DNA of 64,000 nucleotides from Fragilaria crotonensis (lineage: Eukaryota; Bacillariophyta; Fragilariophyceae; Fragilariales; Fragilariaceae), in NCBI GenBank assembly GCA_022925895.1, contig JAKSYS010000272.1, positions 1 to 64,000 on the forward strand. The letters run 5' to 3'. The notes beneath the pieces were generated by a model. The model ran no database searches. It worked only from the letters and a program-made list of their open reading frames with translations, and was not told the origin of the DNA. This document shows positions 40,678 through 47,360 of the stretch, piece after piece. Both the position numbers and the translations under genes were made by a program. Positions within the stretch are counted from its first letter, which is position 1; each line of letters begins with the position of its first letter.

Positions 40678-41017
40678 TTTTAGTTGACATAGTGCTGGCG
40701 GGCTGGGAGTAACTGATCTGCATAGCTTGATAGATTTGGTTCGAACATGGGGTTTATACTCCGTAGTATGACATCTGTCATGAGCGGTCGTATGTCGTGA
40801 TAGTTTGTACTCGCAGTACAGTACACTTCAGTATACTTTTCACTTACGTAGTCGTTTACGTTGCATGCCCTATTGAGTGGTATACCTTCATGCATGAATT
40901 CCGGATACATTCGTAGTACTCCACAATTGAATTCCGGAATCTGACACAGACTTCGGACAAAGCATTTGTACTCATATACCAGTACACCAGTACCAAGAAT
41001 ACTGGATGCTGGATACC

Positions 41018-41400
41018 CAGGCTCACGTCAACGGTTCGTCTTCGTCTAACACAGTGTGGTATGGTAGTAGCTTCCGAAACGACACTTGCAGATTGACGCC
41101 GTTGAAGTTCAACAATAATTCCAATCTGAACTCAGGCTCATGTTGAAGGTGCGTCATCTGCTGTATGGCAGGTTCAGCAACAAGACGCTTGCAAGAAACT
41201 ATGCTGTTGCAGTCATTCTGCAGTAATTCCAAACTCAACTCAGGCTCACGTCGATTGTTGTGTGTCATCTGCTATATGGCAGCTTCAGCAACAAGATGCT
41301 TGCAAATTGATGTTGTGGAAAGTGGTTGAAAGCACTAACAAATTGATGTTCCCTTCAGCCCACCTTATCTGCTGCATGGCAAGTTTGGCAACAACAAAAT
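41018..41400 (+). repeat. Degenerate tandem repeat, about 108-115 base unit, about four copies
   Basis: The phrase CAGGCTCA begins copies at 41018, 41133 and 41241, with a fainter copy near 41356. Later in each unit GTCATCTGCT, TATGGCAG and TTCAGCAACAAG recur. Spacing is 115, 108 and about 115 bases. Confidence 0.7.
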
Positions 41401-41786
41401 GATGACTTCTGAAAGGGGGAATTCCTGTTGCAACCACACAGCCAACAAAAGTCTTCATTGATTTCAATGATGTTGGTACACACAAACATGATTGTAGCTG
41501 CACGGATGAATGGAGAGCAGCAACCTGACAATGGAGTTCAAGGAGTATCAGTTTGACAACATGAGATACCCGGTAGTGTGCTGGCAACAGCATCTAGTAC
41601 TTCACTATTATGCCAGTTTGCTTTGTACTAGTAACATTTGGCTGCAGGAAGGATTTGGAAATTCTGATACTGGATCCTTGTTCTTCAACTGGTTGTTGCT
41701 TTTGCTAGTAAGTCACAGTACTTGCAGAATCTGATCTCACTTCAGCATGGAGCGAATACTACAAGACCCCATTTTGCGTAAGCATC

Positions 41787-42498
41787 CTAATTAGAGCCAC
41801 CAGAAGGGAAGGAGGAGCCATCCTTGTAGGGTGAATGGTGAGCCATCACCAGAGCTATCATCTTCTTACAGTTGCAAAGCACTTCTTTGCCAATCACAGC
41901 AAGGTCCTCCCACTGATAGTAGCTGGCGGTACTAGCATTGAGCAAACTCTTCCTTGCAAGAAGACCCTTCTCAATTAAACCTTTGCCCGCATATATGTTG
42001 ATGGATGACTGTCCGTGAAGAGATGGGATCATAATCAAGCAAGACAGTTCCTCCATTGATGTCCTAGAGTGGACATCATCAGTGAGAAGTCCTTGGAACT
42101 TGTTAGTAAGCCCTCCAACAAGGAACTGATCTTCATAGCACATCCCATCAGAGTTGCCATTTTTGTCACCAAAGCAAAGCTTTGCCATCAACTGCTCCAT
42201 GCATGAGTGTTTCAATCATTGATGTGCCACCTTGACTACTAACTAGAGGGGAGTTGAAGCATTCAAAAGCAAGTTGTCCTTGAAACTCCACTAGGAGCTT
42301 CTTCATCACATTCCTCATATCAGCTCTCCTGGTGCAATCCTGCCTCTTATTTAAAGAGATGAGACATCTTGAGTAAGCATGCTGCGCAAGAAATGGCACG
42401 GCTGATGCAAGAGTGATCAAAATTGGAGGGATGTCGATTTGTTGTGGTCGTGGAATGTGGTATAAGTTTTTCTTGTCAGGATACAAGGAATGAATCAT
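41787..42498 (-). other. Unrecognised minus-strand open frames, doubtful
   Basis: Two overlapping frames (42166-42498 and 41787-42215) of 110 and 142 codons. Segments such as MKKLLVEFQGQLAFECFNSP and YEDQFLVGGLTNKFQGLLTD look protein-like, and the two would need one frame change to join. I recognise no family. It may be a decayed gene or element remnant. Confidence 0.25.
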
Positions 42499-42945
42499 CT
42501 ATTTTGTGTTCGTTTTGCTCTTGTAAGGCAGCTCTTAAACAAAGTTCACAAATGGGATGATCCCGTTCGTTTTGTGTTTCTTATGTTCACGGAAAAATCG
42601 CCCTTGACCAACAATACCTGAAAACACGGCAACACGGCTGGTGCACAGTGCGCAGCCCTTGCTCGGCGATGATACCAGTACCAGTACCAGTAGTTTGACA
42701 TCGATTGCGCCAACGAAAGGCGCGATGACGCGCGTTTTGCCAGGCCTTCCCTTGTACTGTAGACTTGCACTGTACGTCGCGTTGGTGAGGTTCGCATTGT
42801 GGCTACTCTCGAGAGCTACCGTTTCCGGGGAAGTTCGGATTTGGGACACGATTCAGTATGAATGTATGAATGCCTTGCCATTTTTTCGTTCACATTTCGA
42901 TTTTCATTCGGAATTCCCTTCGGCATCCGGACTCCAAAGCCAGCC

Positions 42946-44321
42946 ATGCGTCTTCGATTACTGCTCGTTGTTTGGATCTGGCGCATCGTCGCCGTCTCAA
43001 CAATAGATTCGATTCGGAAGCAGATAACAATCATGAATAAAAGCGGAACCAGGCTCCAAGTCCTTTGGGTGAGTCCAACCGGTGACCAGGTCCCATTCTC
43101 GGACATCTACAACGGTGCACGCGTTAGCGTCGACAGCTTCGTTAATCACACATTTGTCATAAGGCAAATGAACGTCGAAGCGAAACAGAGTCGCATAGGC
43201 TACCTCACTGTCGACAACAGTGACAACCAAGGTAAGTGGACGCCCTCGCGCCAAACTTTGCATCTCGTCAGCATTAACCATTTTTCTCGTCAGTCGTTCT
43301 CATCAAGGAAAACATGGAGATCAAACGAGAGGACAACGGAGCCAATACAGAGGTGAACACCACGCTGGAAGTCGAGAACCCTTCCATTCCGAACGATCAG
43401 ATCGATGAACTTGTGGCCGGATACGAAGAGCGGCTTACCTCGATCTTAGAGAAAAAGAATAAAGAGATCAGTTTCGAGGCGAAGAATCGCATGCACATAG
43501 GGAGCTTGCTTGAAGACTACACTTGTCTAGATGATGAGCTTCCAACGAGTCAAGGAAAAGAGACACGTCAGTGGGCTTATAACGACAAATTGCACGATGT
43601 TAATGTGCTTCTGGAACGTCCTGACAGTCAGATTCATCTGATCCGTAATTTCATCACGCAAGAGGAATGTGATGCATTTCAAGGGGCCGCTTCAAGTATT
43701 CTGCATCGAGGAACAGTGGCTGATGGCAACGGTGGCAGCAAACTTTCCGAGAATCGCAAGGCTTGGCAAGCAGGTATTGCTGTTCCATGGGAGAAAGAAG
43801 CTGACGGTGATCTCCTCGCCAGATACACACGACGAATGTACGCCTATGCAAATCATGCTACAGGCTACAACTTAAATGTAGAAGGCCAGGAAGACATAAT
43901 GAGTATTCAATACTTTGGTCACAACGGTGATCACCCCATCGGGAGCTCGTATAGCCCCGAAACTCCAGATAGGTACACGCCGCATTGTGATGGTGATTGT
44001 CATGGGTTGCCTCATCGAAAAGCCAGAGTCGCAACGATGGTTGCCTACTGCACCGTTCCGTCCAAAGGTGGTGCGACGAACTTCAAGAATGTTGCAGCTC
44101 ACGTGAAGCCAGAATTCGGAGCTGGAGTCTTCTTCAGCTATATGAATCCAGACACGAAGGTCATGGACACCGGGTGGACAACACACTCAGGCTGCCCCGT
44201 TCTTGAGGGAACTAAGAGAATTGTTGTTCACTGGATGCGTGTGGGAGTGTCCACTGACGAACCGTGGGATTCATTCAACACTTTGAATCTACCAAAGCAC
44301 TCGGAACAGGAATATTATTAG
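42946..44321 (+). CDS. Prolyl 4-hydroxylase fused to an N-terminal VHL-like beta domain
   Basis: Two exons (42946-43231 and 43294-44321; 62-nt intron, donor GTAAGT) encode 437 residues. MRLRLLLVVWIWRIVAVST is a signal peptide; an earlier in-frame ATG at 42862 would add 28 residues and is less likely. Residues about 25-95 resemble the VHL beta domain: ITIMNKSGTRLQVLWVSPTG, VPFSDI, then VDSFVNHTFVIR. The hydroxyproline-pocket positions read Trp, Phe (Tyr98 in human VHL), Ser, His and Phe (Trp117). A charged coiled stretch follows. The 2OG-Fe(II) domain has LIRNFITQEECDAF, YTPHCDGDCHG (iron His and Asp), TMVAYCTVPSKGGATNF, HSGCPVLEGTKRIVVHWMRV (distal His and 2OG-binding Lys). It probably hydroxylates peptidyl proline in the ER. 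Its stop is 8 bases from the convergent UNC-45 stop. Confidence 0.85.
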
Positions 44322-44329
44322 TGTCGTCA

Positions 44330-47300
44330 TTAGAATCCTTCTTTAGCAATATTCTTCGCAAGGTTGACTGTCAACGTCATGATATCTTGTTCCGCATCTG
44401 TGAAACCTAGGTCTGAGGCCAGCGAACCGTCATGGTATGAATCAACGTAGACACGGCAGAACACGGTCAGCCCAGCCGCGACCACCTCCTCCTTGCATTT
44501 GCCACCAAGTTCCATTAAGTTCTGAATCACAACTAAAACGCGATGCATTAGCTCTAGGTTTCCACTTTGGAGGAGGGCGGTCATAGATTCTTTGAAGGAA
44601 GGAAGTCCCACCAATGCGATGGCTATGTCGATGATGTGTGTCGACATCGCAAGACAGCCCGATGCGGCGCGAGCGCATTCCAAGTTGGATTCGTGGTCAG
44701 CTGCGAAAGCTAACCAAAGTCGCAAGTTCTGCGGGTCTGAGAGGTGCTTGACCATCGCAGGGTGGGGCACGAGGTTGCACATGGCTTCCGTCCCAGCTCG
44801 GCGAACCAGCGAGTGGTCGAAAACATGGCATAATTGAGAACCGATACGCCTTTCTCTGAGACAATCTTCTCCTTTGCGTCGTCGCCTGATGCCGCCAGAT
44901 TGGTCACAGCCAATAGGCCCTCAAAGCATTGCAGATCCGAGGCGTCTGAGTCACCAATCAACAGGAGTAACGGCTTGATCGCACCGAGTCGTTGAGACGT
45001 CGTGAGAATACTAGATTGGTTGTCACCAGCAATCGAGCGATGCATTGGCGGGCCTCTCACGCTCCTCTTTTTACAGCTGAGGCGTTTTCTGCCTCTTCGA
45101 ACTTTATGCAGGCCGACAAAGCCCCTTGTTGGATTAATAGACCACGAGACGGTATGTCATTTGCCATGCGATTGATACCAACAGCAAGCTTCTCAAGCGT
45201 GGTTTCTTTTGCACCTTCCATAAGTTTGACCATGGCTTGCGGGACGTTAGCAACAGCAAGCTTCCGGATACGTTCTTCCACAGCCTTCGGGTGGTCATCC
45301 GGTACTTTCGGCGTTGCCTCTTTCTCTTCTTCTGTTTTCCCAAGCGCTTGCAGCTCATCATATTGCTCCATTGAAATCTCTTTCCCAGCAAAAGCTTCTC
45401 TTCTTAGTGTCTCGTTCGAAACCGCGATCAAGGAAAAGACGGTTGCAAGCGCGAATGCCGACACAGACTCGCCTGCATTCGGCCGATTTGCTAGTTCAAC
45501 AAGCCTTTCGAGTGCTGTTTGTTTTGCATCCACTTGACTCTTGAACCCGTGTGCCAACTCTTCCTTCACCTGAGTTTTGGATGACAGATATCCAATCAAT
45601 TCGATTCCTCGCTCAATAGACGTCGTTGCCATCACAAAGGAGCCCTTCTTGATAACTTTATTTTCCACCTCGTCAGATTCATCCTCGTCCAAGAGTTCCG
45701 AAGCAATCTGAAGAAGCTCCATAACGTCACTACTACTTGATTCAAGATTCTTGTCGGCCATACCGAGCTTAGCTACCGCAGATGCGGCTCCAGAGCGAAT
45801 GCATTGTTCTGGATGCTCTAGTAAAGGATCTACAGACCCATCTGTAAACATGGACGAAATGGCAGGTCGAGCTTTCTCCACCGATGCAGCAGCCGAGACC
45901 AGCTCAGATACAATTGCCATTGCATTTGGATCGTTTGATAAAATTAAGTCACGCGTTTCATGGCGCACTTGGTCCAGGGCCCAGGCGCCGACATCCGGTT
46001 TCCCAAAGAGCAGTGACGACACAAATTGCCCTCTAATCATCAACTCGAAAAGCCTTTCGCGCGTCACGTCACTTTCCTCCTTGGTCTCATCAACCTCTTC
46101 AATCGAAATCAATCCGTCACCGATCATTTGTTTTGCAACTTTCATGGCATCATCGTCGTCCTCAATAGAGGATAGAATTCTTCCCAACACAACCCCGACC
46201 TGCTTTCGCAAAATATGATTACTTTTTGTCACAGACACTTCCAAGAGCTTTCTCAGGCCTCCTTCATCACAAAAGAAAATCGCACGTCGGGTGGCCCATT
46301 CTTTGTCTCGCTTCAAGCGTTGGTATTCTATTTTCTTTATGGCAGCGACATCCCGCGGTTTCAGGCGACGCAACTCCGATTCCGTATGTTTGTGCAGGAG
46401 TGGCTCAGTGGTTGAGGCAGTCACAACGCTCTCACGATTCGCAGCTGTCCATGTGCTGAGTACATCAAGAGCTGCCGGAAGCAATGCATCGTCGGTAAAG
46501 CAAGACATGCACGATCGCATGAGCAGATTGTCGTCAATGGATGACGTCGTTTCCTGAGAATCGAGTGGATCGAGGTAAAGCACTAACCGCAGCCAAATAG
46601 ATAGGCAGCCCATTCGTAAGTCTTCAAACAGATCGCCTTGCATCCATTCCGCAAGGCGAGCTTGTGATATTTCGTTGCCGTGTTCTCTGACTAATTTCGG
46701 GTTAGAGCATGCGAGCGCCAAAACCTGTAGCGCCTTCGCAGACTGGAAGTCCAACATCATACCCACGCCGCCGCGTCGACCGAATTCCAGAGGGGCGGAT
46801 TTGTCATCATCAGTAAGCAAACCAAGCAAAATATTGAACTGCTTCGTGCGTTCGTCCTCCTCCCCTGCCTCTCGTATCGAATCAAGAGTTTGACTTATTG
46901 GAGTACCCTTGGTCATGTCATGCTTGGCCCGAATCGTTTTCAGCAATGCCCCGGCAGGTCCATTCTTAGGATCCAACGAGAGTAGCTGCAGCAAATCTTT
47001 CGCAGCATCCTGTAATAAGGCTTTCATCGCGCTGCTGGACGCTTCTGTCAGCAAGAACCGCGCTTTCGCTCTTCGATACAAAAGCTTTGTTCGAACCGTA
47101 TCATCCTTCACCGCGGATAGAGCTTCGGAGCAATCGTCCACACACTCTTGTAAATTTCCGCGGCTGAGGTAGCATGCAGCTCGGTTCGAAAGGAAAGTGG
47201 CCTTGAGGTTTGGATCGACTGCACCCGACTTGCATAAATCAATTCCTTTAGTGTACTCAACAATGGCAGCGTCAAAATTCGACGATTGAAAATGCCTGTT

Positions 47301-47360
47301 TCCCTCACTTTTGATACTCTCAAGTTGATTCGAGAGTCCTTCTTTCGCCCTGGCTTCCAT
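44330..47360 (-). CDS. UNC45: UNC-45/UCS-type myosin chaperone, frame interrupted
   Basis: Large single-exon gene from ATG 47360 to a stop at 44330, about 1010 residues. The N-terminus is a three-repeat TPR domain (KSEGNRHFQSSNFDAAIVEY, SNRAACYLSRGNLQECVDDC, LLYRRAKARFLL) of the Hsp90-binding kind. Long armadillo-like helical repeats follow. The C-terminal part carries the UCS-like block (KPLLLLIGDSDASDLQCFEG, LLAVTNLAASG, MCNLVPHPAMVKHL, RLWLAFAADHES). UNC-45 proteins fold myosin heads with Hsp90. The frame changes near 45070 (A5 on the coding strand) and near 44821 (T4), with conserved sequence across both, so assembly indels are likely. Diatoms have several myosins, which fits. Confidence 0.85.

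What the first reader, a model, noticed from the sequence alone, without database searches (positions are those of the whole stretch)
42946..44321. Prolyl 4-hydroxylase carrying a VHL-like hydroxyproline-reader domain
One gene appears to join a 2OG-Fe(II) prolyl hydroxylase (writer) to a domain resembling the VHL beta domain (reader of hydroxyproline). The order N-K-S, VLW, G-x-x-V-P-F, S-F-x-N-H-x-F follows human VHL from Asn78 to Trp117. Pocket residues Trp88, Ser111 and His115 are kept; Tyr98 and Trp117 are both Phe. A signal peptide puts the fusion in the secretory pathway, unlike animal VHL. The reader domain could hold hydroxylated product and make the enzyme processive, or present hydroxyproline for glycosylation. 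I know of no description of this pairing in diatoms.
Basis: partly seen in the sequence, partly recalled or inferred. Interest (0 to 1): 0.75.

Follow-up and report, generated by a model that had tools for sequence, protein, structure and literature searches.

The report
Diatom proline hydroxylase with VHL domain
A diatom gene joins an enzyme of the kind that adds hydroxyl groups to proline to a domain built like VHL, the human protein that recognises such prolines; the join looks real and is shared by two sister genes, but whether the domain really reads hydroxyproline is not shown.

Summary
Exons 42946-43231 and 43294-44321 encode a 437-residue protein: hydrophobic N terminus (probable signal peptide), VHL-beta-like domain, linker, 2OG-Fe(II) prolyl-4-hydroxylase-type domain with its expected catalytic residues. 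Pfam alone is sub-threshold for VHL (16.1 bits, cut-off 21). A VHL profile built without these genes gives 31.5 bits, reached by 0 of 3000 shuffles, and the 50 listed PDB matches of the predicted fold are all from VHL entries. Two paralogs in the same genome have the same order of parts and a phase-1 intron at the same place, so the fusion is a gene family and not a gene-model error. Trp88, Ser111 and His115 of VHL are kept in 3 of 3 members. However, Trp, Ser/Thr and His are also kept in 7 of 7 VHL domains from 6 bacterial genomes, 4 of which give no match to hydroxylase family PF13640. The triad thus marks the superfamily and does not show hydroxyproline reading. Ten searches of one open-access library listed no paper on the pairing. 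Best reading: a secretory prolyl hydroxylase whose VHL-like module holds (hydroxy)prolyl repeats; the binding is inferred.

The parts
42946..43231 (+). exon 1: probable signal peptide and VHL-beta-like domain
   Evidence: translation and GT donor; Pfam VHL 16.1 bits, below its cut-off; homologous exon 1 in two paralogs
42946..43002 (+). N-terminal hydrophobic stretch, residues 1-19, read as a signal peptide
   Evidence: mean Kyte-Doolittle 2.4 over residues 6-17; 2.9 and 2.7 for the best 12 residues in the two paralogs; no signal-peptide program was available, the end is a guess
43003..43230 (+). VHL-beta-like domain, residues 20-95 (may run on into exon 2)
   Evidence: independent VHL profile 31.5 bits, 0 of 3000 shuffles; AF2 model, mean pLDDT 76.7, strands at 24-30, 36-42, 48-54, 59-65, 69-75, 84-88; the 50 listed PDB matches are from VHL entries
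43066..43068 (+). Trp41, equivalent of VHL Trp88
   Evidence: ungapped alignment; invariant in 3 of 3 paralogs
43135..43137 (+). Ser64, equivalent of VHL Ser111
43147..43149 (+). His68, equivalent of VHL His115
43232..43293 (+). intron, 62 bases, GTAAGT...CAG, phase 1, at the end of the VHL-like domain
   Evidence: same position and phase in hand-made models of the C276 and C819 paralogs
43294..44321 (+). exon 2: linker and prolyl-4-hydroxylase-type domain, with stop
43968..44240 (+). 2OG-FeII_Oxy_3 match, residues 321-411
   Evidence: PF13640, E 2.4e-8, 35.3 bits, cut-off 27; PDB prolyl 4-hydroxylases from E 5e-10
43983..43991 (+). expected iron ligands His326 and Asp328 (HxD)
   Evidence: roles recalled from the 2OG oxygenase family
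44184..44186 (+). expected third iron ligand His393
   Evidence: role recalled
44214..44216 (+). Lys403, expected to bind 2-oxoglutarate
   Evidence: role recalled

Best explanation
The gene encodes a prolyl 4-hydroxylase-type enzyme of the secretory pathway with a divergent VHL-beta domain at its N terminus. I think the enzyme hydroxylates prolines in proline-rich secreted proteins (diatom wall proteins are the obvious candidates), and that the VHL-like module binds prolyl or hydroxyprolyl stretches of the same substrate, so that the chain stays on the enzyme while further prolines are modified. Shown here: the architecture, the fold assignment (by profile and prediction), the presence of the expected catalytic residues, the kept Trp/Ser/His set, and the occurrence of the fusion in three genes with a common intron. 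Inferred: secretion, catalytic activity, substrates, any ligand of the VHL-like domain, and processivity.
For: Hydroxylase: PF13640 above cut-off and PDB prolyl 4-hydroxylases as best matches, HxD...H...K kept. VHL domain: independent profile 31.5, 19.6 and 14.3 bits for the three paralogs, 0 of 3000 shuffles each; AF2 models with two different lead paralogs, the 50 listed PDB matches from VHL entries in both. Shared fusion: paralogs on C276 and C819 with the same order and the same phase-1 intron. Pocket: the equivalents of Trp88, Ser111, His115 and (as Phe) Trp117 are among the 11 invariant positions of residues 20-95 in the three exon-1 proteins. Substrate class exists: hydroxyproline or dihydroxyproline is reported in diatom silaffins, and dihydroxyproline in the walls of several diatoms (PMC3820600 and PMC5501833, passages read).
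Against: The Trp, Ser/Thr and His set is equally kept in 7 of 7 bacterial VHL domains, 4 of whose 6 genomes gave no PF13640 match, so it is not evidence specific to hydroxyproline. Tyr98 is Phe51 in the window and is not kept in the paralogs. Asn67-His-Thr is a possible N-glycosylation site at the pocket. A fourth paralog (C218) has the catalytic half with another N terminus, so the enzyme can exist without the VHL part. No binding, activity or expression data. Both AF2 models rest on the same three sequences, and 3 of 5 and 4 of 5 models per job had mean pLDDT below 53.
Confidence: 0.42

Rival explanations
1. The VHL-like domain is a structural module (folding, dimerisation, partner or membrane contact in the ER or Golgi) that happens to keep the ancestral pocket; it does not bind hydroxyproline. 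The enzyme works like any other secretory prolyl 4-hydroxylase.
For: Trp, Ser/Thr and His are kept in 7 of 7 bacterial VHL domains, 4 of the 6 genomes giving no PF13640 match, and in a separate VHL-PUB protein of this genome. Tyr98 is lost and a sequon sits in the pocket loop. The C218 paralog does without the domain.
Against: The first exons of the paralogs are only 25-38% identical, yet the pocket positions are kept. Coupling of a VHL fold to a proline hydroxylase in particular would be a coincidence.
Confidence: 0.38
2. The domain is a substrate-binding module for unmodified proline-rich chains, like the peptide-substrate-binding domain of collagen prolyl 4-hydroxylase, rather than a reader of the product.
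For: Position N-terminal to the catalytic domain as in collagen P4H alpha subunits (recalled); Trp41 and Phe70 are kept in 3 of 3 paralogs while the Tyr98 position varies.
Against: Ser64 and His68, whose equivalents bind the 4-hydroxyl in VHL (recalled), are strictly kept too.
Confidence: 0.15
3. The VHL resemblance is accidental or an AlphaFold artefact and the domain is another small beta sandwich.
For: Pfam VHL below its cut-off and no Pfam VHL match for the two paralogs; no VHL in phmmer or profile searches of PDB; hhalign of the three-paralog profile with human VHL gives only 7.8% probability (E 0.0044); Foldseek E-values are weak (best 1.7e-3) and the viral library gives uncharacterised proteins at similar E (2.6e-3); pairwise the paralogs do not exceed shuffles against human VHL.
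Against: Independent VHL profile, 0 of 3000 shuffles for each of the three genes; E 3e-7 for the window among 9534 frames; the 50 listed PDB matches from VHL entries for two models.
Confidence: 0.05

Closest known systems
VHL beta domain (PF01847), human pVHL
   Same: predicted beta sandwich; ungapped 48-residue alignment; Asn78, Trp88, Ser111, His115 kept
   Different: no VHL alpha (elongin-C-binding) part seen by Pfam, hydrophobic N terminus, Tyr98 and Trp117 are Phe, fused to the hydroxylase; Pfam score below cut-off
Secretory prolyl 4-hydroxylases (algal P4H of 2jig/3gze/2jij, collagen P4H alpha, plant type 1 and 2 P4Hs)
   Same: 2OG-Fe(II) catalytic domain with HxD...H...K
   Different: accessory domains there are the peptide-substrate-binding domain (animals, recalled) or the C-terminal Tox1 domain (plant type 2; start of the abstract of PMC11275109 seen in the listing), not VHL
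Bacterial VHL-domain proteins (Litorilituus EMK97_00595, PMC9002001, passages read; loci L083-L089)
   Same: VHL-beta domain, in proteins predicted (paper) or looking by eye (6 of 7 loci) to be exported; Trp, Ser/Thr and His kept in 7 of 7 loci
   Different: no hydroxylase domain in the seven frames by Pfam; one has a ricin-B-like lectin and one an MliC domain
VHL-PUB protein of the same genome (C10, L001)
   Same: VHL domain at 25.3 bits with Trp, Thr, His, Trp at the pocket positions
   Different: fused to a PUB domain; no hydroxylase in that reading frame

Membership tests
VHL beta domain superfamily | Pfam PF01847 score over the curated cut-off (21 bits) | tested here: not met
   16.1 bits for exon 1, 12.9 for the whole protein; none for the two paralogs. 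One of the seven bacterial domains also falls just short, at 19.8
VHL beta domain superfamily | significant match to a VHL profile built without these genes | tested here: met
   31.5, 19.6 and 14.3 bits, 0 of 3000 shuffles each; E 3e-7, 6.3e-4 and 0.056 among 9534 frames, so the third is weak by itself
VHL beta domain superfamily | VHL beta-sandwich fold | tested here: met
   predicted models only, mean pLDDT 76.7 and 76.4; the 50 listed PDB matches from VHL entries, E 1.7e-3 to 4.4e-3 and 6.3e-3 to 1.9e-2
VHL beta domain superfamily | Trp88 / Ser or Thr111 / His115 | tested here: met
   3 of 3 paralogs; also 9 of 9 other VHL domains aligned
VHL beta domain superfamily | full aromatic cage with Tyr98 and Trp117 | tested here: not met
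   Phe51 and Phe70; Tyr98 also varies among the bacterial domains
VHL beta domain superfamily | binding of 4-hydroxyproline | not testable with these tools
   needs a binding assay
pVHL, E3 ligase receptor | alpha domain that binds elongin C | tested here: not met
   only PF13640 and the VHL beta match appear in the protein; the BC-box was not searched by itself
Prolyl 4-hydroxylase | 2OG-Fe(II) domain with HxD...H and the 2OG-binding Lys | tested here: met
Prolyl 4-hydroxylase | hydroxylation of peptidyl proline | not testable with these tools
   needs an enzyme assay
Collagen prolyl 4-hydroxylase alpha subunit | N-terminal and peptide-substrate-binding domains | tested here: not met
   Pfam lists nothing but VHL and 2OG-FeII_Oxy_3 up to E 10 (the filters drop most weak matches)

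The most novel reading that the evidence does not exclude
A writer and reader of hydroxyproline in one secreted chain: the VHL-like domain binds the enzyme's own product through Ser64 and His68 and makes hydroxylation of diatom wall-protein repeats processive, so that hydroxyproline reading by the VHL fold exists outside the HIF and elongin system, and in the secretory pathway.
Probability: 0.27. Interest if true: 0.82.

Novelty: new variant of a known kind. Interest (0 to 1): 0.57.

Why it matters
Hydroxyproline recognition by VHL is known (recalled) as the read-out of animal oxygen sensing. A VHL fold fused to a secretory-type proline hydroxylase in a diatom gives a directly testable case for where that pocket came from and what it did before HIF. 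It also offers a candidate enzyme family for the (di)hydroxyproline of diatom walls; the passages that I read report the modification and name no enzyme. The bacterial comparison shows that the pocket residues are wider than the HIF pathway, which raises a question of its own: what do bacterial VHL domains bind?

Tried and rejected
Gene-model artefact (two genes wrongly joined): rejected, because two paralogs share the order of parts and the intron position and phase. Recent gene pair: the near-identical copy on C462 is 99.3% identical over the 5.5 kb compared (2 mismatches, 35 gap letters in 29 gaps) and has broken frames; I read it as an alternative contig of the same locus with sequencing errors and not as a second gene. 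Bacterial or viral origin of the fusion: two pattern scans with the VHL-like domain (43 and 47 candidate stretches, 0 confirmed) and tblastn of phages and plasmids found no relative of exon 1; the hydroxylase half matched 3 SAR86 loci and 20 viral loci at 22-32% identity, none with a VHL-like frame in the DNA held. VHL in other hydroxylases of this genome: of 52 PF13640 match rows, 30 loci (about 1.5 kb on each side) were scanned and 0 had the domain; the other 22 rows were not scanned, and the window gene itself is missing from that list, so it is incomplete. Profile search of PDB with three paralogs: only chance matches. hhalign of that profile with human VHL aligned the right residues but with 7.8% probability, and with the VHL-PUB protein 4.3%. 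The viral structure library gave weak matches to mostly unnamed proteins. A paper on diatoms that mentions VHL uses it for 'very high light', and one listed for 'von Hippel' showed no such passage when searched.

Full report
What is there. The window carries a two-exon gene on the + strand, 42946-43231 and 43294-44321, with a 62-base GTAAGT...CAG intron in phase 1; the product has 437 residues. The N terminus is hydrophobic (residues 6-17, mean Kyte-Doolittle 2.4; best 12 residues of the paralogs 2.9 and 2.7), which I read as a signal peptide (no dedicated program was available). Pfam finds 2OG-FeII_Oxy_3 at residues 321-411 (35.3 bits, cut-off 27, E 2.4e-8) and a sub-threshold VHL beta domain: 12.9 bits in the whole protein, 16.1 bits (E 0.012) in exon 1 alone, cut-off 21. 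The catalytic half matches solved prolyl 4-hydroxylases (best E 5e-10) and keeps His326-x-Asp328, His393 and Lys403 (the roles of these residues are recalled).

Where it is. The host genome has 62,107,879 bases in 881 contigs, and the window's G+C is 46.7%. A paper describes Fragilaria crotonensis SAG 28.96 with 61.85 Mb, 879 contigs and 47.40% G+C from Nanopore and Illumina reads (PMC9476933, first of two parts of the text read). I think that this or a very similar assembly is the source; it is an inference from these numbers. The paper says that organelle genomes had been removed, so the two extra contigs are not explained.

Is the VHL resemblance real? Against it: the Pfam score is below cut-off, the paralogs score nothing for VHL in Pfam, phmmer and hmmsearch against PDB do not find VHL, hhalign of the three-paralog profile with human VHL gives 7.8% probability, E 0.0044, and pairwise the two paralogs do not exceed shuffles against human VHL (1063 and 1078 of 2000 shuffles reach their scores). 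For it: the window aligns to human VHL without gaps over 48 residues, with 1 of 2000 shuffles reaching the score. A profile of nine VHL domains outside this family (human, the VHL-PUB protein of this genome, seven bacterial) gives 31.5 bits for the window, 19.6 for C276 and 14.3 for C819, and 0 of 3000 shuffles of each sequence reach these. Among 9534 reading frames from 90 sequences (the window and 89 partly overlapping loci) the same profile ranks these genes directly below the VHL proteins it was made from, at E 3e-7, 6.3e-4 and 0.056, before any unrelated frame (best 7.3 bits). AlphaFold2 on three sequences gives a beta sandwich (mean pLDDT 76.7 in the best of five models; the others 73.7, 52.3, 52.1, 46.8). 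The 50 listed PDB matches all come from VHL entries by title, several at 0.8-0.9 A over 50 columns, though with E-values of only 1.7e-3 and above (the list stops at 50 of 1733 matches up to E 10). The C276 paralog as lead sequence gives the same outcome (best model 76.4, the rest 47.0-52.6; the 50 listed matches from VHL entries, E from 6.3e-3). The two predictions share one set of three sequences and are not independent. A search of viral predicted structures gives mostly uncharacterised proteins at similar E (from 2.6e-3), so the Foldseek E-value alone does not decide. Taken together I put the VHL-type fold at about 0.95.

The family in this genome. Exon 1 has homologues on C276 (38% identity over the part matched) and C819 (25%); C276 and C819 share 34% (E 9e-16). 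The hydroxylase half has homologues on C276, C819 and C218, and a distant one on C26. In hand-made gene models C276 and C819 have hydrophobic N terminus, VHL-like exon and hydroxylase in the same order, with a phase-1 intron at the same place. C218 has the hydroxylase half (49 and 61% identity in two exons) behind a phase-1 intron, but no VHL-like exon in the stretch searched; its first exon is different and charged, and my model of it is incomplete at both ends. Thus 3 of these 4 close members carry the domain, and exchange of the first exon is the simplest account of the fourth. The C462 copy is 99.3% identical over the 5.5 kb compared, flanks included, with 29 short gaps; it is most likely a redundant contig of the same locus. 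Among 52 PF13640 match rows in the genome, 30 loci were scanned (about 1.5 kb on each side) and 0 had the domain; 22 rows were not scanned, and the list is incomplete, since the window gene itself is not in it.

The pocket. Invariant positions at residues 20-95 of the three exon-1 proteins are Arg24, Asn31, Gly34, Trp41, Gly57, Ser64, Val66, His68, Phe70, Val89 and Gln95. By the ungapped alignment these include the equivalents of VHL Asn78, Trp88, Ser111, His115 and Trp117 (as Phe). That Ser111 and His115 bind the hydroxyl of hydroxyproline is recalled knowledge. This looks like selection for a hydroxyproline pocket until other VHL domains are looked at. PF01847 matched 6 of 398 genomes drawn from the phylum of a SAR86 genome, with 7 domains. 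In these, Trp88 and His115 are kept in 7 of 7, position 111 is Ser (2) or Thr (5), position 117 is Trp (6) or Phe (1), and Tyr98 varies (alignment). Six of the seven frames have a signal-like start by eye; the seventh is cut. Pfam finds VHL in 7 of 7 (one at 19.8 bits, under the cut-off), a ricin-B-like lectin domain in one, an MliC domain in another and no hydroxylase. Only 2 of these 6 genomes have a PF13640 match at E 1e-3 or better, 1 of them over the cut-off; other hydroxylase families were not searched. The triad is therefore a mark of the superfamily. Its conservation in the diatom genes is consistent with hydroxyproline reading but does not show it. In the window copy, Asn67-His68-Thr69 is also a possible N-glycosylation sequon in the pocket loop, which would hinder a peptide if used; the paralogs have Gly or Thr at the position of Asn67.

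How it may work. [quoted passage not shown] PMC3820600 (passages) lists hydroxyproline in silaffin-2 and dihydroxyproline in T. pseudonana silaffins. A secretory prolyl hydroxylase family is a natural maker of such residues. An N-terminal module that holds prolyl or hydroxyprolyl stretches would keep long repeats on the enzyme, as the substrate-binding domain of collagen prolyl 4-hydroxylase is thought to do (recalled). I favour this at 0.42, a purely structural role at 0.38, a binder of unmodified proline only at 0.15, and a mistaken fold at 0.05.

What is known. Ten searches of the open-access library listed no paper on a VHL domain joined to a prolyl hydroxylase, as far as titles and abstract starts tell; the listings were capped at 15-20 papers each, and most hits were seen as listings only. 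Subscription papers and protein databases such as InterPro were not searched, so the architecture may be catalogued there. A bacterial VHL-domain protein predicted to be exported has been described computationally (PMC9002001, passages read). One listed paper engineers a prolyl-hydroxylase-dependent proteolysis system in plants and holds the phrase 'VHL beta domain' once (PMC13223302, listing only).

Verdict. It is a new variant of known parts, worth a bench test, with the caution that the pocket residues are common to the superfamily.

Noticed in passing
L001 934-2355 (-), genome contig C10: A separate protein with a VHL beta domain (25.3 bits) and a PUB domain (41.2 bits); Trp, Thr, His and Trp stand at the VHL pocket positions.
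   Followed up: partly
L083-L089 (six unnamed bacterial genomes): Bacterial proteins with one VHL domain each, 6 of 7 with a signal-like start by eye; Trp88, Ser/Thr111 and His115 equivalents kept in 7 of 7, although 4 of 6 genomes show no PF13640 hydroxylase. What they bind is unknown.
   Followed up: partly
L020 1635-3221, contig C218: Hydroxylase paralog whose first exon is a long charged stretch instead of the VHL-like domain, joined by a phase-1 intron: looks like exchange of the first exon.
   Followed up: partly
window 40845-46356 and contig C462:2500-8000: 99.3% identical redundant contig with 29 short gaps, some of which break its reading frames; sequencing errors in an unmerged contig are the likely cause.
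   Followed up: yes
window 44330-47360 (-): A TPR-bearing reading frame of 767 residues (45057-47360) is followed by two shorter overlapping frames (44710-45060 and 44330-44782) on the same strand, without Pfam matches; perhaps one gene interrupted by introns or frame errors.
   Followed up: partly
window 43144-43152: Asn67-His68-Thr69 places a possible N-glycosylation site on the pocket loop of the window copy; the paralogs lack it there.
   Followed up: no
window about 44020: The window copy lacks one Gly codon that the C462 contig and the three paralogs have shortly before Arg-Val/Met-Ala-Thr-Met; allele or assembly difference.
   Followed up: no
window 41113-41301: A pair of direct repeats of about 80 bases (41113-41194 and 41221-41301), 83-85% identical, in the spacer upstream.
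   Followed up: no
BFVD A7IV66 and others: Uncharacterised proteins of chlorella, pitho- and marseilleviruses have predicted folds that match the VHL-like model weakly (E from 2.6e-3); some may hold VHL-like domains.
   Followed up: no
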